Source of the DNA: Saprospiraceae bacterium
GTDB taxonomy: Bacteria; Bacteroidota; Bacteroidia; Chitinophagales; Saprospiraceae
DNA: 47,681 nucleotides
Reading direction: 5' to 3'
Assembly (NCBI GenBank): GCA_020436835.1
Contig: JAGQWZ010000021.1
Span: 1-47,681 of the forward strand
Shown: piece by piece, positions 8,385 through 46,408 of the stretch
Layout of the letters: every line of letters begins with the position of its first letter
Numbering within the stretch: position 1 is the first letter of the stretch
Made by a program: the position numbers and the translations under genes
The notes under the pieces: generated by a model
Seen by the model: only the letters and a program-made list of their open reading frames with translations
The model's database searches: none
Told to the model about the DNA's origin: nothing

Positions 8385-8554
8385 AAAGCTGAATTTTAAA
8401 TGATTGTTTTTTTTCGCGGCAGCAAAAATAAGGGATTAGATTGGAAGCTAGGTCTTTTACTCTCCGGGATCGTCATGCAACTTTTTCAGACACATTTCTG
8501 GCTTCGATTGACCGAAATCTCAAATTATTCCCGAAATTAGGCAAGACCGAGGAT

Positions 8555-11500
8555 ATGACCATTGACAGACATCCCCCATCCATTGACCTCCGGTATATCC
8601 TGGCCGTTGTGGTCATGCTCAGTTTTGGGTATCTCAAAGCTCAAACTGATTTGTTTATATCGGAGTATCTTGAATCCCCCGGTAGTAAATGTATCGAGAT
8701 CTTTAACCCCACCAATAGCACCATCAACTTAAGCGGAGTTTACCGCCTCAGAATGGGATTTAATGGCGGGACTCTTATCACCAAAAGCAATCTTACCGGA
8801 AGTATCTCCCCCAAACAGACACATGTGGTTTGCACCAGCGGCTCCTCTTTCTCCTATGATCAAAGCATGGGGGCAGTGGGTCACAATGGAAATGATGTGG
8901 TGGTCCTTGAAAAAAATATGATCCCGATCGATATCCTTGGCAACATAGGGTGTGATCCCGGAGGGGCATGGACTGCTCCCGGGTTGTCAACTATGGGCAT
9001 GTCCCTGGTCAGGAAGGGATGTGTTACGGATGGCATGAGCAACGATCCACCGGATTCCCCTTGCACCTTTCCAAGCTTATCATTCGAATGGGTTGGCTTT
9101 TCAGCCGGTACTTCGCGACTTGGAACCCACGGCTTTTTGTACGGAGGACTGACAATAAATGAAATTGATCCCGCCAACTGCGGAGGTGATGACGGAGAAA
9201 TCATCATTCAGGCGAATGGAGAAGGCCTGGAGTATTCAATCAATGGAACAGCAGGACCTTTTATTACATCAGGGATTTTCAATGATTTAATGGCAGGCTC
9301 TTATGACGTTATAGTAAGAGTCTCCGATGATCCCGGGTGCTTTTTGACCGGCCAGGCAACTTTAATTGAAGGGCCCTTGCCGGTGATACAAGATATTCAG
9401 TCTTACGATCCGACAGATTGTAATCTGAATGATGGGTCAATCCTAATCACCGCCTCAGGAGTTAACCTGGAGTACAGCATTAATAATGGAAGCTCGTTTC
9501 AGTCCAGCCCAACCTTCACCGGACTGGCTCCGGACAGTTATGATCTCGTGATCCGAGAAGTAAGCGCAGTAAATTGTTTTGTTAATAATACCGCAGTCAT
9601 ATCTGCACTATCGGATCCTGAGGTACAATCTATTAATCTCAATGATGTATCCGACTGTGGAACCCAAGATGGTTCTATTATAATCAATGCAACTCCGGCA
9701 GGCCTGGAATATTCCATAGATAACGGATCGTCCTGGAATGCTACCCCAACATTTGCAAATCTACCCGGTGGAGTCTACCAGATCGTGGTGCGCAAGTCTT
9801 CTGCTCCGGCATGCCGGGAGACCGCAACAGCTTCGATCAATGCTCCTTCACCTCCGCTAGCCCAGATCAGTTCGATAGACAATGCCGATTGTAAAGGCTC
9901 GGCAAATGGTCGTATTACCCTCAGTGTCGCCGGTGGTACGGGAAGTTACCAATATAATTGGTCTGGTCCGTCCGTGGTTGGTAATGTGGCCACTGCTCTT
10001 AATCTGGCGGCAGGAGATTACTATGTTACCGTATCGGATTTGAGTTATCCCGGATGCCAGGATATGGTTGATCAAATCCGGATCGCAGAACCAACCAACG
10101 ATCCTCCGATTCCCAATTTGATGCCTTTTTCTGATCTATGTGAATTGGGAACCCCCATACCACTAGATCCCAATCCGGATGGTTTCACCGGGAGCTGGTC
10201 CGGGCCAGGTGTCAATGGCAACCAGTTTTCTCCGGAAGGATTGCAGGGGTCCCTCGAATTGACGTTCCAGCCGGCAGCGGGAGTCTGCGCTCAAGCTACA
10301 AGTACATCCGTGTTTGTTGTCGCCGCTGTAACCCCCGATCTCCAGGTAATACCCAATCTTTGTGCGAATGAATCTCCGATTGCTCTGGATATGATTCAAG
10401 GTGGTATAAGAGGAATCTGGACAGGCCAGGGAGTCTTAAATAATATCTTCTCTCCTCTTGGTCTCAATGGTAACATTGCATTAGATTTCATTGTAGATGC
10501 AGATCAGTGTGCCAATAATGCCGGGAAGATTGCCAAGGTATTTCCGGTCCAAATTCCTTTTCTGGATCCCTTCTCTACTATCTGTAATGATGATCCTCCA
10601 CTACCCCTCCCGCGACTTCAGGATCAAATCCTGGGAGATTGGTACGGCCCTGGCGTCGACAATAACCTATTTGATCCAACGGATCTATCCGGTATCATAA
10701 CCCTGGAATTTTTGCCTGCAGCCAATCAATGTGCAGAACCAAACCGCCAGACTATTGAAGTTGGTACCAATCCCGAAGTCTCAATAATCGCAAACAATCC
10801 TACCTGCTTTGGTCAGGCAAATGGCAAGTTGGAACTGATTATTGACGGAGGTAAAGCCCCATATTTGATAGACTGGGACCATGATGGCTTCGGCGATTTC
10901 AATGATCCATTCATTCTTACAGATCTGGATATCGGTAATTATTCCGCGAGAATCATAGATGAAAACAGATGCCTCACTGAGATGACAGCGGATCTGGAGC
11001 AACCTGACGCACTCAGTGTGAGCCTGGTTACGATACACGAAAGTCAAGCTGGTGTCAGAGACGGAGAGATCAAAGCTCATGTGAGTGGAGGGACTCCACC
11101 GTATAAATTTGAGTGGGATACCGGAACAACCGGGGATTTCATTTCAAACCTGGGTGAAGGAGAATACCGGATCACGATTACAGATGACAACGGTTGTCAG
11201 GTTTCAGAACTTGCTACGATAAATTCCGGCAATTGTGCTTTGAGTGCATCGATCCAAAGCACAAACCCAAGTTGTCATGGCTCAATCGATGGATCTGCTG
11301 AAATTACTGTGCAGGGAGGATTATCACCTCTCCATTTCCAATGGTCTCACATACCCACCACGGATACAAACCGGGTCACAGACCTTCCAGCTGGAAATTA
11401 CGAGGTGACCATCTCCGATGCCGGTGGTTGTGAAGAAGTACAATCACTGCAAATTGATCAGCCTGATACACTCGTAAGCCTTCTCAATGTCTTTCCCCAA

Positions 11501-14065
11501 TCAACAGCAGGATCTTCGGATGCCATGATATCCGTAAAAACAACAGGCGGCACAGAACCTTACCGGTGGCAATGGAGTAATGGTGATTCAACAGATCTTA
11601 TTACCGGTTTGTTACCAGGCATCTACCGTCTGACCACGACGGATGCTCTCGGCTGTATTCATTTGGAGGAGACTCAGATCGAAGGTTTTGACTGTGCGGT
11701 AAACCTCCAGATTTTGACAAAACCGGCATCCTGTGCCCTTAGTCTGGATGGAGAGATTGAGGTAACAGTCATTGGTAGTACACATCCTGTTAAGTTCAGC
11801 TGGAGTCATGATAACACCCTTGATACAAATATTGTAACCGGTCTTCCTGGCGGAATCTATCAAGTGACGATGGTAGACGCCAATGATTGCATCGCCTCAG
11901 ACACTGTGACCGTAATGGCACCAACACCCCTTGATTTGTCTTTTTCGACGACCACTCCGGGTGCAGATCAAAAGGATGGTCAGATTATGAGTCAGGTGTC
12001 CGGGGGTACCCCACCCTACATCTGGAGCTGGAGTACCGGTGACATTTCCCAGGATATTGACCAATTGGATTTTGGTACCTATCACCTGACAGTGACTGAT
12101 GCCGGTGGTTGTTCAATCGTTGAATCAGTAATCCTCTCCGGTCAAATCGATCAGGACTGTGACCTTGGATTTACCGTGATCACTGATTCGGTAAGCTGTG
12201 CCGGCAATAAAAATGGAGTGGCGCAAGTCGTGATCAGCTCAGGTACAAGCCCATTTTCGGTGAGTTGGAGTCATGACCCGGGCGAACATCAGATGAAGAT
12301 CGAAGACCTGGCTGCCGGCACTTATGCGGTGACCGTAACTGATAGAGACATGTGTGAAGAAAATCAGGTTTTTGAAATTGGGGAACCCGAGCTCTTAAGA
12401 TTGTCGTTTGATGCAGAGAATGAGACCGCAATTGGGGCAAAAGATGGCTATATCGTGGTAACCCCATTTGGAGGCACACCTCCCTATACTTTTGAATGGA
12501 ACACCGGACAGGCTCTCGATAGTATAGGCAGCCTGAAACCCGGTACCTACAGTGTGACCGTAACTGATTCGCATGGATGTGTCTGGTCGAGATCGACAAT
12601 GATCAATGCAGCTGATTGTACCTTACTGAGCAATGTGTCCGCCCGCCCGGCAAAATGCTATGGAGAAGCCAGTGGGACCGCCAGACTTGACATCACCACG
12701 CTCGATTTTCCAGTGAGTATCCAATGGTCTCACGATACAACACTCACCAGAAATGTCGCTGAAAGTCTGCCTGCCGGAAACTACAGTGTTACGATCACTG
12801 ACCAAATTGGATGCCGGCATACCTGGTCTTATGCCATCGCAGAACCAGATTCTTTGAGCCTGGGGTTCTTTGTCAATCACCAATCTGAAAAAGGTAAGGA
12901 TGACGGATCTGCCCAGGTTTTGATCCAGGGAGGTACACCCGGTTATTCCATTTTTTGGGACAACGGATCAAATAATAAATTGATTGAGGACCTGGCTCCC
13001 GGAACGTATTTCGTCACAGTCGTGGATGATAATGGATGCAGCAAGGAAGATTCGATCGAAATCTTCAGCTCGGAGCAATGCCGGTTGGAAGCAAACCTTT
13101 CGGCGACTGCGTCCGGTTGTGACATGGCCAGCGGTAGTGTAATGGCCCAACCAGTGAATACGCGCGGTGCACCGGCATTCCGTTGGAGTACTTCGGATCT
13201 GGACAAGGGTCCCTTTGTTGAAAACCTGGCACCCGGCACCTATTGGGTCGAAGTAGAGGACGACTTCTGTTTGGCCAGGGACACTATATCCATCGAAGTC
13301 AATGACATCAGGTCGATTTCTTACAACCTCAAACAATCGGTATGTGATCCAACCGCCAACGAATTGATCATAGGAGCTGTATCTGGTGGTCAGCAGCCTT
13401 ATGAATACTACCTGGACGAAGATCAAACAAAGGTGGATCAGCCCATCCTAATGCAGCCGGGAATCCATATGCTACAGGTTGTTGATGGCACCGGTTGCGT
13501 CCTTACGGACACATTTACCGTACAAAGTGACCAACTTCAAATAACGCGGGATACAACGATTAAGAAAGGGGCCACTATTGTATTGGAGGCTGAATACTCC
13601 GCCGATTCCACCAGGGCACAATATGGTTGGAGAGCCCGGACGGGCGAGCTTTGCCGGTCTTGTCTATCCACTTCTGTCAGTCCATTGGAGTCAGAGACTT
13701 ATACATTCTTTTACCGGGAAAGCGATGGCTGCCGGTTTGAAGAAAAGTTGAGAGTCACTGTGTCTGAGCAAGATCTGTTTTATATCCCTAATGCTTTCAC
13801 CTTGAATGGAGATGGATTAAACGATGCCTTCATCATATTTGATACCTATGACCTGATTGAAGAAGTAGCGAGCCTGGAAATCTTTGATCGTAGGGGAGTC
13901 CGGATCTACCAGACCATACACCTGCCTGGTAATGAGGAAGCTCCGGGATTTTCCCAAATCATGCAAGATGCGATCGCTCCGCAAGTTTATATTTATCGGG
14001 CCCATATCAGATTTAAGCAGGGATTTGAAAGGATCGTAACCGGCGATTTCACTCTCCTAAAATGA
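8555..14065 (+). CDS. Giant T9SS-secreted adhesin: lamin-tail domain, alternating SprB repeats, gliding-motility-associated C-terminal domain
   Basis: The frame opens at TTG 8441, but ATG 8555 gives a real signal peptide (YILAVVVMLSFGYLKAQ), so I use that start; the protein is 1836 residues. In order it shows: a lamin-tail-like domain (DLFISEYLESPG, about 30-200); three repeats around LEYSI(N/D)NGS; one SprB repeat; three repeats with G-x-W-x-G-x-GV and LxF; then about eleven SprB modules. In these, a Cys-containing type (CHGSIDG ... WSH) alternates with a type lacking that Cys (GGTPPYxFEW). A Cys-poor linker domain leads to the C-terminal CHU_C domain starting YIPNAFTLNGDGLNDAF. That domain marks export by T9SS and surface attachment. 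Likely roles are adhesion or gliding, as for SprB in Flavobacterium johnsoniae; this is inference. Confidence 0.92.
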   Translation: MTIDRHPPSIDLRYILAVVVMLSFGYLKAQTDLFISEYLESPGSKCIEIFNPTNSTINLSGVYRLRMGFNGGTLITKSNLTGSISPKQTHVVCTSGSSFSYDQSMGAVGHNGNDVVVLEKNMIPIDILGNIGCDPGGAWTAPGLSTMGMSLVRKGCVTDGMSNDPPDSPCTFPSLSFEWVGFSAGTSRLGTHGFLYGGLTINEIDPANCGGDDGEIIIQANGEGLEYSINGTAGPFITSGIFNDLMAGSYDVIVRVSDDPGCFLTGQATLIEGPLPVIQDIQSYDPTDCNLNDGSILITASGVNLEYSINNGSSFQSSPTFTGLAPDSYDLVIREVSAVNCFVNNTAVISALSDPEVQSINLNDVSDCGTQDGSIIINATPAGLEYSIDNGSSWNATPTFANLPGGVYQIVVRKSSAPACRETATASINAPSPPLAQISSIDNADCKGSANGRITLSVAGGTGSYQYNWSGPSVVGNVATALNLAAGDYYVTVSDLSYPGCQDMVDQIRIAEPTNDPPIPNLMPFSDLCELGTPIPLDPNPDGFTGSWSGPGVNGNQFSPEGLQGSLELTFQPAAGVCAQATSTSVFVVAAVTPDLQVIPNLCANESPIALDMIQGGIRGIWTGQGVLNNIFSPLGLNGNIALDFIVDADQCANNAGKIAKVFPVQIPFLDPFSTICNDDPPLPLPRLQDQILGDWYGPGVDNNLFDPTDLSGIITLEFLPAANQCAEPNRQTIEVGTNPEVSIIANNPTCFGQANGKLELIIDGGKAPYLIDWDHDGFGDFNDPFILTDLDIGNYSARIIDENRCLTEMTADLEQPDALSVSLVTIHESQAGVRDGEIKAHVSGGTPPYKFEWDTGTTGDFISNLGEGEYRITITDDNGCQVSELATINSGNCALSASIQSTNPSCHGSIDGSAEITVQGGLSPLHFQWSHIPTTDTNRVTDLPAGNYEVTISDAGGCEEVQSLQIDQPDTLVSLLNVFPQSTAGSSDAMISVKTTGGTEPYRWQWSNGDSTDLITGLLPGIYRLTTTDALGCIHLEETQIEGFDCAVNLQILTKPASCALSLDGEIEVTVIGSTHPVKFSWSHDNTLDTNIVTGLPGGIYQVTMVDANDCIASDTVTVMAPTPLDLSFSTTTPGADQKDGQIMSQVSGGTPPYIWSWSTGDISQDIDQLDFGTYHLTVTDAGGCSIVESVILSGQIDQDCDLGFTVITDSVSCAGNKNGVAQVVISSGTSPFSVSWSHDPGEHQMKIEDLAAGTYAVTVTDRDMCEENQVFEIGEPELLRLSFDAENETAIGAKDGYIVVTPFGGTPPYTFEWNTGQALDSIGSLKPGTYSVTVTDSHGCVWSRSTMINAADCTLLSNVSARPAKCYGEASGTARLDITTLDFPVSIQWSHDTTLTRNVAESLPAGNYSVTITDQIGCRHTWSYAIAEPDSLSLGFFVNHQSEKGKDDGSAQVLIQGGTPGYSIFWDNGSNNKLIEDLAPGTYFVTVVDDNGCSKEDSIEIFSSEQCRLEANLSATASGCDMASGSVMAQPVNTRGAPAFRWSTSDLDKGPFVENLAPGTYWVEVEDDFCLARDTISIEVNDIRSISYNLKQSVCDPTANELIIGAVSGGQQPYEYYLDEDQTKVDQPILMQPGIHMLQVVDGTGCVLTDTFTVQSDQLQITRDTTIKKGATIVLEAEYSADSTRAQYGWRARTGELCRSCLSTSVSPLESETYTFFYRESDGCRFEEKLRVTVSEQDLFYIPNAFTLNGDGLNDAFIIFDTYDLIEEVASLEIFDRRGVRIYQTIHLPGNEEAPGFSQIMQDAIAPQVYIYRAHIRFKQGFERIVTGDFTLLK

Positions 14066-14221: not shown

Positions 14222-15700
14222 ATGAAATCAATTTATATTTTATTTTTTGCATTAGTTGCCGCAATATCATTTCCTCCCCTGGTTGAGGCAGGAAATTTTA
14301 ATGACGATTGGACCTGCTACACTTCCAATAATTACCGGGGAAGTAAGAAAATGATGAACGCAGGGGAATACGAAAACTGCAGTAATTGGAAATACTACTC
14401 ATGGAAATCCAACTGCTGTGTAAAATTCTATTTCTACTACCGGGATGGGAATAAAGGAGAAAAAGTACTCTGTGGAGATGTACGCGATCTAAAAAATGAA
14501 ATGCGTCAGTGGGGAAATTTAAAGTATGGATACCAGGGAGGATGGAGAAATATTTATAAGGCTGTTTTTTATTGTGAGGGAAATAATGATTATGCTGAAA
14601 ATAATAATCACAACAACCATAACAATAATAATAACGGCAATCACAATAATAATCGCGGAGGCAACTACAATGACATGTTACGTAAAGGACAGTGTGTGGT
14701 TTGGCGGGACCAGGGATACAAGAATGACTATGAAGGTTTTATGCCGGAAAAGAAATACTATCCTCGCAATTTAAGATACAAATTCTGGAGCCTGCAGTGT
14801 CCTGATAATTATGAGGTGTATTGGGTTTACAAGTCACGGAATGGCCGCGAGGAAGAGTATACCTGTGATGGTAAAATATCTGACCTTCGTTCTCATTTTA
14901 ATCGCTGGAATGTGAACAATAAAAATAATGCCTGGGACTACGTACAGTACTTTGAAATCCGTAAAAAAGGCATGGGTGGAAATAATCATGCCGGCAATAA
15001 TAACCATAACAATAACAACGGCGGCGGAAATTACAACGAATTGTTGCGCAAAGGTCAATGTGTAGTCTGGCAAGATCAGGGGTATAAGAATAATTATGAA
15101 GGATTTATGCCTGGCAAAAAGTATTATCCTCGTAATCTAAATTACAAATTCTGGAGCCTGCAGTGCCCCGACAACTACGAAGTATATTGGGTATATAAGT
15201 CAAGAAATGGACGAGAAGAAGAATATACCTGTGATGGTAAAATATCTGACCTCCGATCTCATTTCAACCGCTGGAATGTAAATAATCGAAATAACGCCTG
15301 GGACTATGTCCAGTATTTTGAAATCCGTAAAAAGGGCATGGGTGGAAACAACTATGGCAAAGAGGAAGATTACAAAAATAAGGACTGGTACAACAAATAT
15401 CGAAATGGAGGCTATATCGTCTTTACTCAATATAGATATTACGACGGCAGATATGCCGGTAAGACTCCAGGGGACTATGACCACCGAAAATTGGGATTTT
15501 ATCCCCAATCGATATTCATACCGAGTTACTCCATATATCTTGTACTTGAGTACAAGGCACGGAACGGACGCAATGAAAGTATCACAATAAAAGAAAGTAT
15601 CGCTGATCTGGGTAAATACCTTTATGACAAAGGAGTATATCGAGACTACGAGAAAGATCCCTATAAAGCGATCACTCGCCTGGCAGTGATCCGGCAGTAG
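14222..15700 (+). CDS. Secreted four-module protein resembling beta/gamma-crystallin domains, with Asn/His-rich linkers
   Basis: This is a 492-residue exported protein with a signal peptide ending near residue 23 (PPLVEA-GN). Four related modules lie at about 26-120, 149-251, 271-373 and 385-492. Each reads as paired Greek-key halves: an aromatic-rich strand then YxxxYEG or NYRG, a (G/P)xxYxxR turn, a strand, then a YKSRNGRxE turn and a (K/E)(I/S)(S/A)DL segment. This pattern is that of beta/gamma-crystallins, although the calcium motif (N/D-N/D-X-X-S/T-S) is degenerate. Modules 2 and 3 differ at only 7 of 107 residues. Between modules 1-2 and 2-3 run Asn/His/Gly-rich linkers (about 121-148 and 252-270). 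Cys residues (C158, C193, C215 in module 2) recur. No T9SS tail is seen, so it may go to the periplasm or outside by another route. Family assignment is inference. Confidence 0.65.
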   Translation: MKSIYILFFALVAAISFPPLVEAGNFNDDWTCYTSNNYRGSKKMMNAGEYENCSNWKYYSWKSNCCVKFYFYYRDGNKGEKVLCGDVRDLKNEMRQWGNLKYGYQGGWRNIYKAVFYCEGNNDYAENNNHNNHNNNNNGNHNNNRGGNYNDMLRKGQCVVWRDQGYKNDYEGFMPEKKYYPRNLRYKFWSLQCPDNYEVYWVYKSRNGREEEYTCDGKISDLRSHFNRWNVNNKNNAWDYVQYFEIRKKGMGGNNHAGNNNHNNNNGGGNYNELLRKGQCVVWQDQGYKNNYEGFMPGKKYYPRNLNYKFWSLQCPDNYEVYWVYKSRNGREEEYTCDGKISDLRSHFNRWNVNNRNNAWDYVQYFEIRKKGMGGNNYGKEEDYKNKDWYNKYRNGGYIVFTQYRYYDGRYAGKTPGDYDHRKLGFYPQSIFIPSYSIYLVLEYKARNGRNESITIKESIADLGKYLYDKGVYRDYEKDPYKAITRLAVIRQ

Positions 15701-18964: not shown

Positions 18965-21900
18965 ATGATTCGATTGATTACGATAATTCTTCTTCTCTTT
19001 TCCCAGCACCTGGCATCAATAGCCCAGGATGAACCCATGCGAGTGGAAAGAACTTCCGCCGTCAATCCCGATGCACCGGTCTATAATGTCCATGTGGACA
19101 AGGAAGGGGAGAAATGGGTCAGTAATTCGGAGGGATTGTGGCAGGTACACGCGGCAGACCTGGCTACCCCCGTCGTTGTGGGCAGTGCAGAAGAGTCATT
19201 ATTGAACCTGCCGGGTGGCAACGCAGATATCCGTTGGTTAAAAGGAGCAATCAATGATGAGTTAGGTGGAATCATCAGTGGAACGAATGTAATCAGTGCC
19301 GCCTACTATAACGAAGTTCAGGATCATCTTTGGATTGGTACGTCAGAAACCGGGATCTTCCTGTTTAGAACTCAACCCAACCTCAAATGGATCAAAGAAA
19401 TCAATAAACGGATGCCCAAACTCCGTTCGGAAAAAATAAACATGATCTATGTAGACGGTGAGGATGACCGTCATTTTATTGGAACAGACCAGGGAGTAAT
19501 CGCAGGAAGAGATGGCCGATGGGGTCTGGAGGAGCGCTATTTTCGATTTCAGGCAGTGGCAAACCGGGGGAAGGAAATATGGCTGCTTGCTGAGGACCTG
19601 ATCTGGGTAATCAGCCCGGAGGATCGTTGGCGAACGGTTGAAATAGACCCCGAAAAAGTTAGTGGCCCGATCAAGGACATCGCCTTTGACCGGGATGGAA
19701 AACTCTGGATCGCATCGGAATATCTCACCATGTTTGATGTGGACAACAATAAATACAAAGTATTCGATGGTGGTGACTATTTTACCAGCAGCGATGTGAA
19801 TTGTATCGCCGTGGATCCCGAAGGTGCCGTATGGGTAGGGACGCAGGACAAAGGACTGTATGTCATTGAGAAAGAATCGGCAATGACGGTCACCTGTTTG
19901 GTTGAAAAGGAGCTTTCTTGTGATCCAAATGTCAACGACGCTTCCCTCGTGGTCAAGATTAATGGTGGCCAACCACCTTATACGTACCAGTGGGATCAGG
20001 GACTCACGGGAGAAAATCCACAAAACCTGGCTGTCGGAACTTATTTGGTGACTGTGACGGATAGTCGGGGACAAGCCAAGGTAGCGGAAGGTGTGGTTCC
20101 GGATACCCGTCTCAGATTGACCGCTGCCCAAAATCGTGCACACAGTGAAGAGAAAAGGGGTGCCGCTCAGGCAACCGTGGAAGGAGGCAAACCCAAGTAC
20201 ACTTTCGTCTGGGACAACGGAGAAGTTGGACCTCAAGCCGAGCGTCTTGAGGCAGGTACTCACAGTGTGACAGTGACCGATGTCAATGGCTGTAAAGCCG
20301 AAACAACCGTCGAAATCAGCCGGGATGCCGCCGTACTCGCTGCCAATATTGTTCGTATTGGTGATGATCGCTGTGCAAAAAGTGACGTACACAGTATACA
20401 GGTCAACATTTCAGGAGGAATTTCTCCATATGATATTGCCTGGAGTGATCCTTCAATTTCCGGTGAGAAAGGAGAGGGAATAAAATCTGGAACTTATTTC
20501 GCTACGGTGACCGATGCACAGAATAATTCCGTGCAGGCATCAATTAATCTCCAGGAAATTGAAGTAATGAAAGCCAGCGCATCCCAGTTGCAGGCTGCAG
20601 ACCTGGAGGGGAATGATGGATCAGGATTGGTAGAAGTGACCGGAACAGAAGGTCGTCTTAAGTACCAGTGGGATAATGGAGAGTCAAAAGCAAGAGCACA
20701 GAAGCTGACGGCCGGTAGTCATAGTGTAACCGTCACTGATCAGAACGGGTGTACAGCCACTGCGACCGTTGAAATCACCCGGGAGGTTGCCGAACTTGCC
20801 TTATCCCTGGCACAAACATCAAAGAGCAAATGTGCCGGCGATGGCGGTAATAGCTTGCAGGCCATGGTGAAAGGAGGATCCGGCCCTTACAGCTATCAGT
20901 GGAGTGATAGCCAGCTATCGGGAACGGAAGTTTCGGGGGTCAAGGCGGGAGTCTATCATCTGACCGTTACCGATTCAAGGGGAGAAGCAATCACAGCATC
21001 AGTCAATGTGGAGAAAGTCGAACCTCTGACCGTGGAGGCTTCAGTGCATTCTGCCGCTACGGCAAATAATAATGATGGAAGAGCATCGGTTAGAGCATCC
21101 GGTGGGACGGGAAATTACACCTATGCCTGGAGTAATGGTGAAAGCAATCGTGAGGCAAACAGCCTGGCTCCGGGAACCCATCACGTGATGGTTACAGATG
21201 AAGCCGGTTGTGAAGCAAGTGCTACGGTGGAAATCGATGAAAACATTTCCGCAATGTCAGTCGTACTCAATCTCACCAGAGATTTGAAATGCAACGGAGC
21301 GAATAATGCAGCCCTTGAAGTCGTCGTCAAGGGAGGAAAAAGTCCATTTTCTTTCAACTGGAGTGATGCAGCTATCGCCGGAGAGAAAGCAGAAGGGCTG
21401 GGGAGTGGACAATATGCTGTAACAGTTTCCGATGCGGCAGGAAATGCGGTCAATGCCAGTATCGATGTGGTGGAACCGGAACCTTTGGTGGCTGAAGTTG
21501 TCGAGCAGAGAGGGGTAACGGATGAGGCCAGTAAGGACGGTAAGGCAGAAGTGAGAGTGAGTGGTGGTGCCGGAGGATATCAATTTCAGTGGGACAATGA
21601 GTTCACGGGGCAGAAGGTAGAAAATCTATCGTTGGGCGCCCATGAGGTGACGGTAACGGATGGCAATGGTTGTGAAGAAGTGGTCGCTTTTGAAACCAAA
21701 CAAAAGATCTTGCCCCAGCTCTCCCTCAACAGGCTACGCAGCGGACAGGTTGTTCAAATGCAGATGCTGCAATTTGATGCGGATAGCGTCAAAATAAATG
21801 AAAGCGCTGAACCTATCCTCGATGAAGTTTATGAATTCCTGAAGGATAATCCGGGTATTGTCATACGCATTGAAGGACATACAAACAATGTACCTCCTGA

Positions 21901-22105
21901 TGAATTCTGTGATAAATTGTCTACGGCCAGAGCCAAATCAGTTGCTGAATATATCGTACAGCAGGGAATTGCAGGTGAGCGGGTCTACTACCGGGGATAT
22001 GGAAAACGCCAACCGTTATATTCGAATCTGACCCCGGAAGGCAGGCGTCTGAATCAGCGGGTAGAAATCAAGATCCTGAATATCGGCGAAGACGATTCCG
22101 GTTGA
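18965..22105 (+). CDS. Surface protein fusing an N-terminal propeller, eight SprB repeats and a C-terminal OmpA domain
   Basis: This is a 1046-residue exported protein (signal peptide ending LASIAQ). Residues about 35-310 contain short WxSNSEGLW, HLWIGTSETG, KLWIASEYL and AVWVGTQDKGLY strands, typical of regulator-propeller (two-component-like) repeats. Eight SprB modules of roughly 75-80 residues follow (about 315-915), in four pairs. Within a pair a module with a conserved Cys (ELSCDPN, DRCAK, SKCAG, LKCNG) is followed by one without it. Residues about 930-1046 are an OmpA/Pal-like domain: LQFDADSVKINES, IRIEGHTNN, LSTARAKSVAEYI and GRRLNQRVEI. The usual Asp for diaminopimelate is Asn here (GHTNN), while the Arg is kept (STARAKS). 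The C-terminus should bind peptidoglycan, so the propeller and repeats are probably periplasmic or reach through the outer membrane. No T9SS tail is present. Confidence 0.85.
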   Translation: MIRLITIILLLFSQHLASIAQDEPMRVERTSAVNPDAPVYNVHVDKEGEKWVSNSEGLWQVHAADLATPVVVGSAEESLLNLPGGNADIRWLKGAINDELGGIISGTNVISAAYYNEVQDHLWIGTSETGIFLFRTQPNLKWIKEINKRMPKLRSEKINMIYVDGEDDRHFIGTDQGVIAGRDGRWGLEERYFRFQAVANRGKEIWLLAEDLIWVISPEDRWRTVEIDPEKVSGPIKDIAFDRDGKLWIASEYLTMFDVDNNKYKVFDGGDYFTSSDVNCIAVDPEGAVWVGTQDKGLYVIEKESAMTVTCLVEKELSCDPNVNDASLVVKINGGQPPYTYQWDQGLTGENPQNLAVGTYLVTVTDSRGQAKVAEGVVPDTRLRLTAAQNRAHSEEKRGAAQATVEGGKPKYTFVWDNGEVGPQAERLEAGTHSVTVTDVNGCKAETTVEISRDAAVLAANIVRIGDDRCAKSDVHSIQVNISGGISPYDIAWSDPSISGEKGEGIKSGTYFATVTDAQNNSVQASINLQEIEVMKASASQLQAADLEGNDGSGLVEVTGTEGRLKYQWDNGESKARAQKLTAGSHSVTVTDQNGCTATATVEITREVAELALSLAQTSKSKCAGDGGNSLQAMVKGGSGPYSYQWSDSQLSGTEVSGVKAGVYHLTVTDSRGEAITASVNVEKVEPLTVEASVHSAATANNNDGRASVRASGGTGNYTYAWSNGESNREANSLAPGTHHVMVTDEAGCEASATVEIDENISAMSVVLNLTRDLKCNGANNAALEVVVKGGKSPFSFNWSDAAIAGEKAEGLGSGQYAVTVSDAAGNAVNASIDVVEPEPLVAEVVEQRGVTDEASKDGKAEVRVSGGAGGYQFQWDNEFTGQKVENLSLGAHEVTVTDGNGCEEVVAFETKQKILPQLSLNRLRSGQVVQMQMLQFDADSVKINESAEPILDEVYEFLKDNPGIVIRIEGHTNNVPPDEFCDKLSTARAKSVAEYIVQQGIAGERVYYRGYGKRQPLYSNLTPEGRRLNQRVEIKILNIGEDDSG

Positions 22106-42137: not shown

Positions 42138-42224
42138 CTTAGCTTCACAAAAAAACTGGATTGCTTATAGAGTAAAACTTATACACGACAAACATTATTG
42201 ATAACTAAACCAAATTGTAGTCGT

Positions 42225-42806
42225 ATGCAAGTTACTCCATTTAGCGACCAGGAACTTATCCAACAATATTTAGACGGCAACGAGAGAGCCTTTGAAGAGC
42301 TCCTTAATCGCCATCGCAGCAAGATCTATACTTCTATCTATCTTTTCGTCAAGGAACAGAGCCTGGCAGAAGACATATTTCAGGAAGTATTTATAAAAAT
42401 CATCAATACGCTTAGGAGTGGAAAATACAATCACGAAGGTAAATTCGTGCAGTGGGCGATGCGAATCGCCTACAATATGTGTGTAGACCAGTTCCGTCGT
42501 AAGAAACGTCGTCCTCAGGTAGCTCCAACCGAATCATTTGACATTTTTGATGTGTTGCATGTATCGGAAGAGAATATGGAAACGACGATGATCAAGAGTC
42601 AAACTCATGAGCGAATCCGCCATCTGGTTGATAGCTTACCTCCCGAACAACGCGAGGTGGTCATTTTGCGACACTATGCAGATATGAGCTTCAAAGAAAT
42701 ATCCCAGCTTACCCGCGTAAGCATTAATACCGCCCTGGGCCGGATGCGATATGCGTTAATCAACATTCGCAAGATGGTCGAGGAAAAAGAAATTATTCTA
42801 CAGTAA
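42225..42806 (+). CDS. ECF-type RNA polymerase sigma factor
   Basis: This is a sigma-70 family factor of 193 residues from ATG 42225 (MQVTPFSDQELIQQYLDGNE); nine codons upstream open only on TTG. Region 2 covers about 22-95 (LLNRHRSKIYTSIYLF, EDIFQEVFIKII, FVQWAMRIAYNMCVDQFRRKKRR), and region 4 covers about 130-185 (LPPEQREVVILRHYADMSFKEIS, then TALGRMRYALINIRK). It directs RNA polymerase to a special promoter set. No anti-sigma gene is next to it, unlike many ECF factors. The long leader with a dyad suggests control at the level of transcript or translation. A terminator follows (42839-42871). Confidence 0.92.
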   Translation: MQVTPFSDQELIQQYLDGNERAFEELLNRHRSKIYTSIYLFVKEQSLAEDIFQEVFIKIINTLRSGKYNHEGKFVQWAMRIAYNMCVDQFRRKKRRPQVAPTESFDIFDVLHVSEENMETTMIKSQTHERIRHLVDSLPPEQREVVILRHYADMSFKEISQLTRVSINTALGRMRYALINIRKMVEEKEIILQ

Positions 42807-42982: not shown

Positions 42983-44626
42983 ATGAAGTTGTCATTACCG
43001 TTCTATATCTTTTTAATCCAGTTGAATTATAGTTTTGCGCAGCAATTCGAATATGCGCTGACCCAGCCGGAATACATCGGTTCCGAAATGAACGACGTTG
43101 TTCCTTATCAGGGATATATCTATATCGCGGGTGGTATGAGCTGGTGCCACCAACCGGCTATTTGGCAATTTGATACTTCTGGAAATCTCATCAATACATT
43201 TAATTTCAGTTCGGAGGGTACGTATGGATCCATTCAGCAACTTCTGATTCGGCCGGAGTCAGGGGAGGCCATTGTGCTGGTAAATGAAAAAACCAAATTT
43301 GACCAGAAAAGCAACCGGGTCAGTGTCATCAAGCTGGATCGAAATTTTGAGGTACAGGATGTGCATGATTTTCCTGAGCTTTCTAACAACGAAAAGCCAC
43401 AGTCTGCCGTCCTAACCGACAGCAGCATCCTTATTTTAGCGCACGACCATTTGCATATCTACGACCACGACTTTATTGAGGTCAATCAAATAAAACTTGA
43501 AGATCCTATACAAAATGAGGCTGTCATTCTTCTCCGGGACGAGCAGATCATTTATTATGACGCTCTGTTGCGGAATACCATATATAATATCGACTATCAG
43601 GGAAATCTACGGGCGGAGGTACACGCACCTGTATTTGATCAGCTGGTGATTTACCAGGATTTTATTTTTATCTCTAAAGACAACAGAATAATAAAATACG
43701 ATCTACAACTTCTTAGTCCCATCGAAGAAACCACCTTTGACATCTATGAAAGCATGGAACTTCAGGTGATCAATGAAGGCTTTCTCGTCATTATTGGCCA
43801 TCGTGAAAACGCTCCTTCCACCATTGCCTATTACGATGAAAATCTCAAAATCGTTTTGGACGAAAAAATTACACCCGAATACGAGAGGAACTTTCGGGGA
43901 GCGATCGACAGTGATTTAGAAATTTTCCAGACAAGCTCTTATCGCCGGCAGTGGCCGATACCTCAAAATGAGTATTCCAGCCAAGACTTTCTTCCGGTGA
44001 TACGGAAAAAACATATTATTTCCCCGCTGGAAATTCAGCGTCCCAGCATGGCTATCGAAAATGTTGAGTTGCTCAATACATTGGAACCTTTTCATTGTGA
44101 CACCAGCCATGCAACCATACCCTATTGCGTTTTTTCTTCAGAATATCTCACTTATGCGATAACGATAAAAAACAGTGGTACACAAACAATTAACAATTTT
44201 GGTTACTACACCAACAACGTAGAAAATCTACTGTGTTATTTTTATACGGGATATCATTATGTAGACAATATTAATCTGGAACCTGGTGGTACCATTACCA
44301 TTATTGATTCGATGCAATTGCATACGATCCTTAACTTTCCCAACCTCGAATTTTATATAGTAGCCCCAAATCATATTATTTCCAATATTCCCACCAGTAC
44401 ATTTTCCTTTGAACAATCTTTGACATCGAGCCGGGAAAGGCACTGGGAGGAGGCACTTAATGTTTTTCCTAATCCTGTGTCAGACATTTTAGGGATTCAA
44501 AGAACCCTTTTAAAGGGATCCAGATATAAAATTTTCGATTGGACTGGAAGAAATGTACGATCAGGGCAATTATCAGAAAATGAACTTGACGTTTCTGACC
44601 TTCCGGAAGGTACTTACACACTCTAG
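42983..44626 (+). CDS. T9SS-secreted protein with a premature stop in its sorting domain
   Basis: This protein starts at ATG 42983 (MKLSLPFYIFLIQLNYSFAQ, a signal peptide; GTG two codons earlier is the alternative). Residues about 20-350 are strand-rich with DTSGNLI and DRNFEVQD repeats, propeller-like. The C-terminus reads as a type A T9SS domain (VFPNPVSDILGIQ ... LPEGTYTL) and stops on TAG at 44624-44626. The frame continues in register as ISEGRKGHFARFIKF and ends at TAA 44672-44674, exactly the missing final strands of the domain. The paralog that follows ends LRIQDGKKQYFNSFIKME at the same place. This looks like a recent nonsense change, or a stop that is read through. Confidence 0.85.
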   Translation: MKLSLPFYIFLIQLNYSFAQQFEYALTQPEYIGSEMNDVVPYQGYIYIAGGMSWCHQPAIWQFDTSGNLINTFNFSSEGTYGSIQQLLIRPESGEAIVLVNEKTKFDQKSNRVSVIKLDRNFEVQDVHDFPELSNNEKPQSAVLTDSSILILAHDHLHIYDHDFIEVNQIKLEDPIQNEAVILLRDEQIIYYDALLRNTIYNIDYQGNLRAEVHAPVFDQLVIYQDFIFISKDNRIIKYDLQLLSPIEETTFDIYESMELQVINEGFLVIIGHRENAPSTIAYYDENLKIVLDEKITPEYERNFRGAIDSDLEIFQTSSYRRQWPIPQNEYSSQDFLPVIRKKHIISPLEIQRPSMAIENVELLNTLEPFHCDTSHATIPYCVFSSEYLTYAITIKNSGTQTINNFGYYTNNVENLLCYFYTGYHYVDNINLEPGGTITIIDSMQLHTILNFPNLEFYIVAPNHIISNIPTSTFSFEQSLTSSRERHWEEALNVFPNPVSDILGIQRTLLKGSRYKIFDWTGRNVRSGQLSENELDVSDLPEGTYTL

Positions 44627-44674
44627 ATATCAGAAGGTCGAAAAGGACATTTTGCACGGTTTATTAAATTCTAA
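44627..44674 (+). pseudogene. Cut-off end of the T9SS sorting domain, in frame after the amber stop
   Basis: The 15 codons after TAG 44624-44626 read ISEGRKGHFARFIKF and end at TAA 44672-44674, 9 bp before the next gene. They restore the expected end of the type A sorting domain. Replacing the TAG by a sense codon would join both parts, with Arg expected from the paralog (YYLRIQDG). Confidence 0.7.
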
Positions 44675-44683
44675 AACAACCCT

Positions 44684-46408
44684 ATGAGAAAGTACTACCT
44701 ATTACTAATCATCTTCATGCTGTTTTTACCCAAGTCAGGACTTCTGGCTCAGGATTTTGAATATGCCATGACCGAGAAAGATCTGGCCGGAGCAAAAATC
44801 AGCGACCTGCTTCTGGTCAATGACCGGATTTATGTAGCCGGCCGGACGAAAGATGAAGGCAACCCGCTAATCATCGTGTTTGATACCTTAGGAAATCTGC
44901 TGGATTACCAGACTTTTTTACCGGAAGTGGATGAGCTTTACTATGGGTATATAAGCGATATCCTTTACGATGACAGCACCGGCAATCTGACGGCTATTAG
45001 TGCTATTTCGCCTGCATGTGATGTGGGTGGGTCTACCATTTTCAAATGGACTATCAGCACCGATCTTGAAAAGTTGGATGAGTTTAAATACACTATCCCG
45101 GGAATGGACGGTCTATCAGATCCTTCAGCCAATCTCGACGATAGTCTTATCGCCATTTCCGTACAGAGCAAAACAGTTATTTATAACCTGCAAAATGAGC
45201 TTCAGCAGGAAATCTCCCTACCTGTGGCACTCTCCAATCCACAGGTCATAATGCACGAGGATCAACTGATCACCTTTGACCGTTACCATAACGATAGTCT
45301 CTTTTTAATTACTCAGGACGGGTTAATAAATCTGAAAAAAAAGACTACTCATTTTAGCCGGATAGAGCTTGTGGAAAACAAATTAATTTCTGCCGGCTCA
45401 GATGGAAAAATCAGAGTCCTTGATCCTGCTTCCCTGGAAATTCTTGACAGCCTGGAAAATGATAATTATTCTACGGTGGAATTCTCCCAACTGGGTCAGG
45501 GACTGCTTCAAGTCATCTTTTCAGACATTGGAAAACAAACCTCGATCGAAATATATGATCTTGATTTAAATTTCATCCGGGCGATCCCCTCCTTTACCAA
45601 TTATGAGTCAAATTTCATCAGTCAGCTGGACGAACATCAGAATCTTTATCAAATGTCCAGCTATTATAATATTAATTTTCCCGACGCGAGTAGTGGCGGT
45701 CTGATCCCTGTACTCCGAAAGTTTCCATCAACTGGAATGCCATCCATTCTGAGACCTTCCCTTGAGATCACTGATGTTCAGGTCATCAATCCCGGAGAAA
45801 TAAATGACTGTTTGTACGACAGTTTATCAGGCATTTGTACTTACTCATTCCCATCTGCCAGTGCTCTAAAATACCAGCTTACAATCAAAAACACCGGTGA
45901 AACAGATATTATCAATATTGGCCATTATGTCGGCACCGTAAGTCCATCATTTTGTGGTTATCTCTACCAGGACTACCGGTATTACGAAAATCTAAATATT
46001 CCTCCCGGAGAAAGTATATCGATCACCGATTCGGTTCAGATGGGATCGGTAGCTGATGCAAAAGCATTAAATTTTTACCTGGCCGGACCGAATCATCTAC
46101 TGGCAGCGGGACAGGATTCGACTTTTTACACCATTGATAATATTTCAACCTCAACCTTTGCCAAAAACGGTCCTGAATTGCTAAGAATATATCCCAATCC
46201 TGTATATGATAAATTGAATATTTCTAATCCCTCGATAAATAATCCTTCTACGACAATCGAAATCATATCGATGACCGGACAAATAATTATGAACATCAAA
46301 ATTAGTGATACCCAGATTGATCTACGAGGATTGAATCCCGGCATATATTACCTTAGAATTCAAGATGGCAAAAAGCAATATTTTAACTCATTTATTAAAA
46401 TGGAATAA
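44684..46408 (+). CDS. T9SS-secreted protein, intact paralog of the preceding gene
   Basis: This is a 574-residue exported protein (MRKYYLLLIIFMLFLPKSGLLA signal). It is related to the preceding protein throughout: FEYAMTEKDLAG and FEYALTQPEYIG start both mature parts, and YVAGR and VFDTLGNL correspond to YIAGG and QFDTSGNL. Later KNTGETDIINIGHYVG corresponds to KNSGTQTINNFGYYTN. A propeller-like region (about 25-350) is followed by a sandwich domain (about 370-480) and a complete type A T9SS domain (RIYPNPVYDKLNIS to IKME). The pair arose by tandem duplication. Function is unknown; a surface sensor or binding protein is possible. It is probably co-transcribed with the first copy. Confidence 0.88.
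   Translation: MRKYYLLLIIFMLFLPKSGLLAQDFEYAMTEKDLAGAKISDLLLVNDRIYVAGRTKDEGNPLIIVFDTLGNLLDYQTFLPEVDELYYGYISDILYDDSTGNLTAISAISPACDVGGSTIFKWTISTDLEKLDEFKYTIPGMDGLSDPSANLDDSLIAISVQSKTVIYNLQNELQQEISLPVALSNPQVIMHEDQLITFDRYHNDSLFLITQDGLINLKKKTTHFSRIELVENKLISAGSDGKIRVLDPASLEILDSLENDNYSTVEFSQLGQGLLQVIFSDIGKQTSIEIYDLDLNFIRAIPSFTNYESNFISQLDEHQNLYQMSSYYNINFPDASSGGLIPVLRKFPSTGMPSILRPSLEITDVQVINPGEINDCLYDSLSGICTYSFPSASALKYQLTIKNTGETDIINIGHYVGTVSPSFCGYLYQDYRYYENLNIPPGESISITDSVQMGSVADAKALNFYLAGPNHLLAAGQDSTFYTIDNISTSTFAKNGPELLRIYPNPVYDKLNISNPSINNPSTTIEIISMTGQIIMNIKISDTQIDLRGLNPGIYYLRIQDGKKQYFNSFIKME

What the first reader, a model, noticed from the sequence alone, without database searches (positions are those of the whole stretch)
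44600..44674. Amber stop inside the T9SS sorting domain of one of two tandem paralogs
The first protein's sorting domain is cut by TAG after TYTL. The next 15 codons, in the same frame, are exactly the expected end (ISEGRKGHFARFIKF), matching YYLRIQDGKKQYFNSFIKME of the intact paralog. Loss of these residues should stop T9SS export or surface anchoring. The possibilities are a fresh pseudogene, a strain variant, a sequencing error, or deliberate read-through that makes two forms of the protein.
Basis: partly seen in the sequence, partly recalled or inferred. Interest (0 to 1): 0.72.

Follow-up and report, generated by a model that had tools for sequence, protein, structure and literature searches.

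The report
Broken export tag in one paralog
A gene for a secreted propeller-shaped protein in an uncultured Saprospiraceae bacterium carries one early stop signal that cuts off the end of its export tag; everything tested points to an ordinary, recent gene-breaking mutation (or, less likely, an assembly error) and not to a special decoding trick.

Summary
TAG at 44624-44626 interrupts a 563-codon frame (42983-44671), and the next 15 codons, closed by TAA at 44672-44674, complete a T9SS type A sorting domain (TIGR04183: 21 bits truncated, below cut-off; 30.3 bits read through). A same-genus Saprospiraceae MAG holds the syntenic ortholog: 563 codons, colinear without a gap, intact. The stop is therefore a derived change. 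In the AlphaFold2 model it falls inside the sixth strand of the sorting domain and removes the seventh. Published Porphyromonas deletions show that smaller losses block export.

Read-through or recoding is not supported: TAG ends 32 of 100 sampled sorting-domain genes here, no CTA-anticodon tRNA was found among 34 tRNA hits, release factor 1 is present, and the RNA after the stop folds unremarkably. Of about 135 sorting domains in the genome only this one is interrupted; no sampled one naturally ends there. The tail still scores like an intact tail, so the stop is young relative to the species split, or an error.

Best reading: a recent nonsense allele (fixed or strain-level) disabling export of this paralog while its neighbour stays intact. 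Assembly error cannot be excluded without reads. Low interest.

The parts
42983..44626 (+). First paralog: predicted exported beta-propeller protein as the standard code reads it (547 aa, stop TAG at 44624-44626). N-terminal signal-peptide-like stretch, propeller, Ig-like domain, truncated T9SS sorting domain. The ORF tool starts it at GTG 42977; the ATG at 42983 matches the start of the ortholog.
44624..44626 (+). In-frame premature TAG (codon 548 counted from the ATG), where the ortholog and the paralog have a sense codon for a basic residue
44627..44671 (+). 15 in-frame codons after the stop (ISEGRKGHFARFIKF): the rest of strand six and all of strand seven of the sorting domain
44672..44674 (+). 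TAA, the probable original stop, 9 bases before the start codon of the second paralog
44462..44668 (+). T9SS type A sorting domain (TIGR04183 positions 1-71) if the stop is read through; its last third is cut off by the TAG
44609..44635 (+). Predicted strand six of the sorting domain (residues 543-551), interrupted by the stop
   Evidence: AlphaFold2 model
44642..44668 (+). Predicted strand seven of the sorting domain (residues 554-562), wholly lost
   Evidence: AlphaFold2 model
44684..46408 (+). Second tandem paralog (574 aa, 29% identical to the first), intact sorting domain
42198..42806 (+). Sigma-factor-like gene upstream; identical at protein level in the same-genus genome, anchors the synteny

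Best explanation
The first paralog encodes a T9SS cargo protein: a signal peptide, a beta-propeller, an Ig-like domain and a type A C-terminal sorting domain. A single recent nonsense change put TAG inside strand six of the sorting domain. Ribosomes should end there, giving a 547-residue protein without half of strand six and all of strand seven, the part the T9SS translocon needs. The protein should be made, cross the inner membrane and stay in the periplasm or be degraded, so this paralog is a fresh loss-of-export allele (fixed in the species or present in the sampled strain), while the neighbouring paralog remains export-competent. Shown: the stop, the intact syntenic ortholog, the undecayed tail, the strand lost in the model, TAG as a normal terminator. 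Inferred: failure of export, and that the base is real and not an assembly error.
For: In-frame stop and tail. Syntenic same-genus ortholog, 563 codons, colinear, intact end. About 135 sorting domains over cut-off in the genome, only this one interrupted; 100 sampled ones all have the final strand, none ends where this does. The truncated product falls below the TIGR04183 cut-off (21 against 23 bits) and the read-through frame passes (30.3). Stop inside strand six and strand seven lost in the model. Removing two residues of RgpB blocks export; replacing the last six of PorU makes it accumulate in the periplasm (PMC11285876). The genome has SprA, a T9SS translocon component. TAG ends 32 of 100 sampled cargo genes and 8 of 28 large genes of the window; RF1 present; no CTA tRNA found. 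Simulated neutral decay: an open, equally good tail has probability 0.34 at no change, 0.16 at 0.1 and 0.012 at 0.5 substitutions per site, while synonymous sites between the orthologs are saturated.
Against: No reads were available, so the base itself is unverified in a 691-contig assembly with 5.65% estimated contamination. Only one direct ortholog was found, so the polarity of the change rests on one relative plus paralogs. Failure of export is inferred from P. gingivalis; no Saprospiraceae cargo was tested.
Confidence: 0.75

Rival explanations
1. Assembly or sequencing error: the organism has a sense codon and the gene is intact.
For: The rest of the gene and the tail are undamaged and full length; the genome is fragmented and its contigs are consensus sequences of a population (691 contigs).
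Against: Only one of about 135 sorting domains in the genome is interrupted and all other large genes of the window are open, so the error rate is not high. Real nonsense alleles are generally expected to be commoner than consensus substitution errors (general knowledge, not measured here).
Confidence: 0.19
2. Deliberate read-through of TAG makes a minor full-length, exported form and a major truncated, retained form.
For: The frame after the stop is open, reaches exactly the ancestral end and keeps the conserved final strand, which continued translation would also produce. Low-level leakiness at TAG exists in E. coli (mean reporter signal well under 1% of wild type at all tested temperatures; PMC11126739).
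Against: Not conserved: the syntenic ortholog has a sense codon. No CTA-anticodon tRNA found. RF1 present. RNA after the stop folds no better than shuffles (z 0.65). TAG ends a third of the sampled cargo genes without a cargo-like continuation. A young stop explains the intact tail equally well.
Confidence: 0.03
3. TAG is reassigned to an amino acid in this lineage.
For: Nothing beyond the single interrupted frame.
Against: 32 of 100 sampled cargo genes and 8 of 28 large genes of the window end with TAG at the expected end of the protein; RF1 present; no CTA tRNA found; only one interrupted sorting domain of about 135.
Confidence: 0.005
4. The truncated protein is a selected variant that works in the periplasm, so loss of the tail is adaptive and not decay.
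For: The body of the gene is uninterrupted, which a young lesion also explains.
Against: No relative with a naturally short end was found; no sign of age or selection since the stop.
Confidence: 0.025

Closest known systems
T9SS type A cargo proteins (TIGR04183 / Pfam PF18962 sorting domain)
   Same: Signal-peptide-like N-terminus, PNP motif at the start of the sorting domain, and a FIK-type final strand if the stop is read through; many such genes in the same genome.
   Different: As read by the standard code, the sorting domain lacks part of strand six and all of strand seven.
C-terminal truncation mutants of P. gingivalis RgpB, PorU, PPAD (PMC11285876)
   Same: Loss or replacement of the last residues of the sorting domain; those mutants are not exported.
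   Different: Laboratory deletions of a few residues; here a natural nonsense change removing the last 16 codons of the frame.
Nonsense alleles and young pseudogenes of bacterial genomes
   Same: One in-frame stop in an otherwise intact gene with an intact syntenic ortholog.
   Different: The lesion lies very close to the end of the gene but inside the export signal, so most of the protein remains.

Membership tests
T9SS type A cargo | C-terminal sorting domain over the curated cut-off (TIGR04183, 23 bits) | tested here: not met
   Product ending at TAG: 21 bits; the frame read through: 30.3 bits. The Pfam model PF18962 passes even for the truncated form (34.5 against 27), covering 1-60 of 75.
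T9SS type A cargo | Complete seven-strand sandwich with final conserved strand | tested here: not met
   Strand 543-551 cut at 548, strand 554-562 absent.
T9SS type A cargo | Organism has a T9SS | tested here: met
   SprA, 2425 bits; about 135 sorting domains.
T9SS type A cargo | Sec signal peptide | tested here: inconclusive
   Hydrophobic N-terminus MKLSLPFYIFLIQLNYSFAQ seen in the sequence; no signal-peptide predictor was run.
Young pseudogene / nonsense allele | Intact ortholog in a relative | tested here: met
Young pseudogene / nonsense allele | Sequence after the stop not decayed | tested here: met
Young pseudogene / nonsense allele | Stop supported by reads or by a second strain | not testable with these tools
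   No reads; no second genome of the species held.
Programmed stop-codon read-through | Stop and tail both conserved across relatives | tested here: not met
   The only syntenic ortholog has a sense codon.
Programmed stop-codon read-through | Suppressor tRNA or stimulatory element | tested here: not met
   No CTA anticodon in 34 tRNA hits; RNA fold z-score 0.65.
Programmed stop-codon read-through | Full-length product detected | not testable with these tools
   Needs proteomics.

The most novel reading that the evidence does not exclude
The amber codon works as a leaky or switchable stop that divides one T9SS cargo into a retained and an exported form.
Probability: 0.03. Interest if true: 0.6.

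Novelty: new member of a known kind. Interest (0 to 1): 0.12.

Why it matters
Little beyond annotation. It gives one natural example of an export signal cut within its last two strands, which could serve to test the Porphyromonas rules for T9SS export in another lineage, and it warns that truncated sorting domains can fall below family cut-offs and be missed.

Tried and rejected
TAG reassignment: rejected by stop usage, RF1 and tRNAs. Structure-stimulated read-through: no unusual fold. Naturally short sorting domains that end after strand six: none among 100 sampled, chosen to include 20 whose profile match ended early. A genus-wide excess of interrupted sorting domains: two in about 465 over four genomes; the other (G001 C114) is a decayed orphan remnant with no cargo body. 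A phage origin: no match in phage records. dN/dS as a dating tool: synonymous sites saturated over the gene, and 15 codons are too few. Literature searches for premature stops in T9SS cargo and for the source of HKST-UBA22 gave nothing relevant.

Full report
What is there. The window is contig C680 of a 7.28 Mb, 691-contig genome whose nearest named relative found is a Saprospiraceae MAG. Downstream of uvrA and a sigma-factor-like gene lie two tandem paralogs, 29% identical. The first, read from ATG 42983, runs 547 codons to TAG at 44624-44626. The same frame then stays open for 15 codons (ISEGRKGHFARFIKF) to TAA at 44672-44674, nine bases before the start of the second gene. The second paralog is intact.

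What the protein is. An AlphaFold2 model of the read-through frame (mean pLDDT 70.5, five aligned sequences, so only moderate confidence) shows many short strands over residues 35-345, then an Ig-like region, then a C-terminal sorting domain. Foldseek matches for the body are beta-propellers; the top hit is PorZ, itself a T9SS surface component, but at low TM-scores, so only the general fold is claimed. By sequence the sorting domain resembles solved T9SS sorting domains such as 8glk. Its sequence family is TIGR04183 / PF18962.

Is the tail really the missing end? The read-through frame raises the TIGR04183 score from 21 bits (positions 1-55, below the 23-bit cut-off) to 30.3 bits (positions 1-71). 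I took 100 other sorting-domain genes from the same genome. All continue to a final strand, 17-27 residues after the GxY motif where that motif could be placed properly; three shorter values in the raw count come from a second GxF inside the tail. The truncated product ends five residues after that G. On a PSSM of the last eight residues the post-stop tail beats 65% of intact tails, and none of 100 in-frame stretches after true stops does as well. In the model the stop (residue 548) lies in strand 543-551, and strand 554-562 is wholly lost.

Relatives. Of six genomes held for the genus, one (G003; contig JAGQWV010000923.1, MAG HKST-UBA22) has the same order of uvrA, sigma factor, first paralog, second paralog. 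Its first paralog is 48% identical, 563 codons long, aligns without a gap, and has a sense codon at the stop position. The more distant homologs in G005 and elsewhere in the window's genome also have complete ends. The stop is therefore derived.

How old. Synonymous sites between the two orthologs are saturated. If the tail had drifted neutrally since a stop of that age it should be unrecognisable: in simulation, the chance of an open tail scoring at least as well falls from 0.34 with no change to 0.16 at 0.1, 0.04 at 0.3 and 0.012 at 0.5 substitutions per site. So the stop is young, or the base is wrong, or the tail is still translated. The simulation is coarse: equal base exchange, one PSSM, 15 codons.

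Read-through and recoding. In this genome TAG ends 32 of 100 sampled cargo genes at the expected protein end, and 8 of 28 large genes in the window. RF1 is present. Among 34 tRNA hits no CTA anticodon appears; the first look scored 150 of 351 candidates and the genome is 97.9% complete, so a missed tRNA is possible. RNA after the stop folds no better than shuffles. Only one of about 135 sorting domains over the cut-off is interrupted. Together with a sense codon in the ortholog this leaves no positive evidence for a programmed event. Basal leakiness, as measured in E. coli (PMC11126739), is likely but would be small.

Consequence. In P. gingivalis, removing two residues of RgpB keeps it in the periplasm, removing four of PPAD affects its secretion, and replacing the last six of PorU makes it accumulate in the periplasm (PMC11285876); the last two strands are regarded as the primary recognition signal (PMC4804311). 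SprA is present here. Loss of strand seven should therefore stop export. This is inference from another lineage.

Base rate. Across four genomes of the genus, two of about 465 sorting domains over the cut-off have a stop inside. The other, in G001, is an orphan fragment with no cargo body and a disturbed end. Loss of cargo genes in this genus is thus infrequent but ordinary.

Verdict. A recent nonsense allele is the best reading (0.75), assembly error next (0.19), read-through unlikely (0.03). Reads would decide between the first two. I do not name which base would restore the gene; intact copies exist.

Noticed in passing
L167 (G001:C114), contig positions 1461-1637, minus strand: An orphan sorting-domain remnant with an in-frame TAG and no cargo body upstream: an older stage of decay of a T9SS cargo gene in the same genus.
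   Followed up: yes
window 42198-42806: Sigma-factor-like protein identical over all 202 residues to that of the same-genus genome, although 92 of 202 third codon positions differ and the neighbouring cargo protein is only 48% identical: very strong protein-level constraint.
   Followed up: partly
window 14222-15700: Protein with three similar repeats separated by runs of Asn and His (HNNHNNNNNGNHNNN type linkers).
   Followed up: no
window 18965-22105: 1046-residue protein combining propeller-like repeats, repeated domains with GGxxPYxYxWD motifs, and an OmpA-like C-terminus.
   Followed up: no
window 8441-14065: 1874-residue multi-repeat surface protein with a gliding-motility type (not type A) C-terminus, FTLNGDGLNDAF motif.
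   Followed up: no
L013 (G000:C186), 991-2487: A third, more distant paralog elsewhere in the same genome, with an intact sorting domain.
   Followed up: partly
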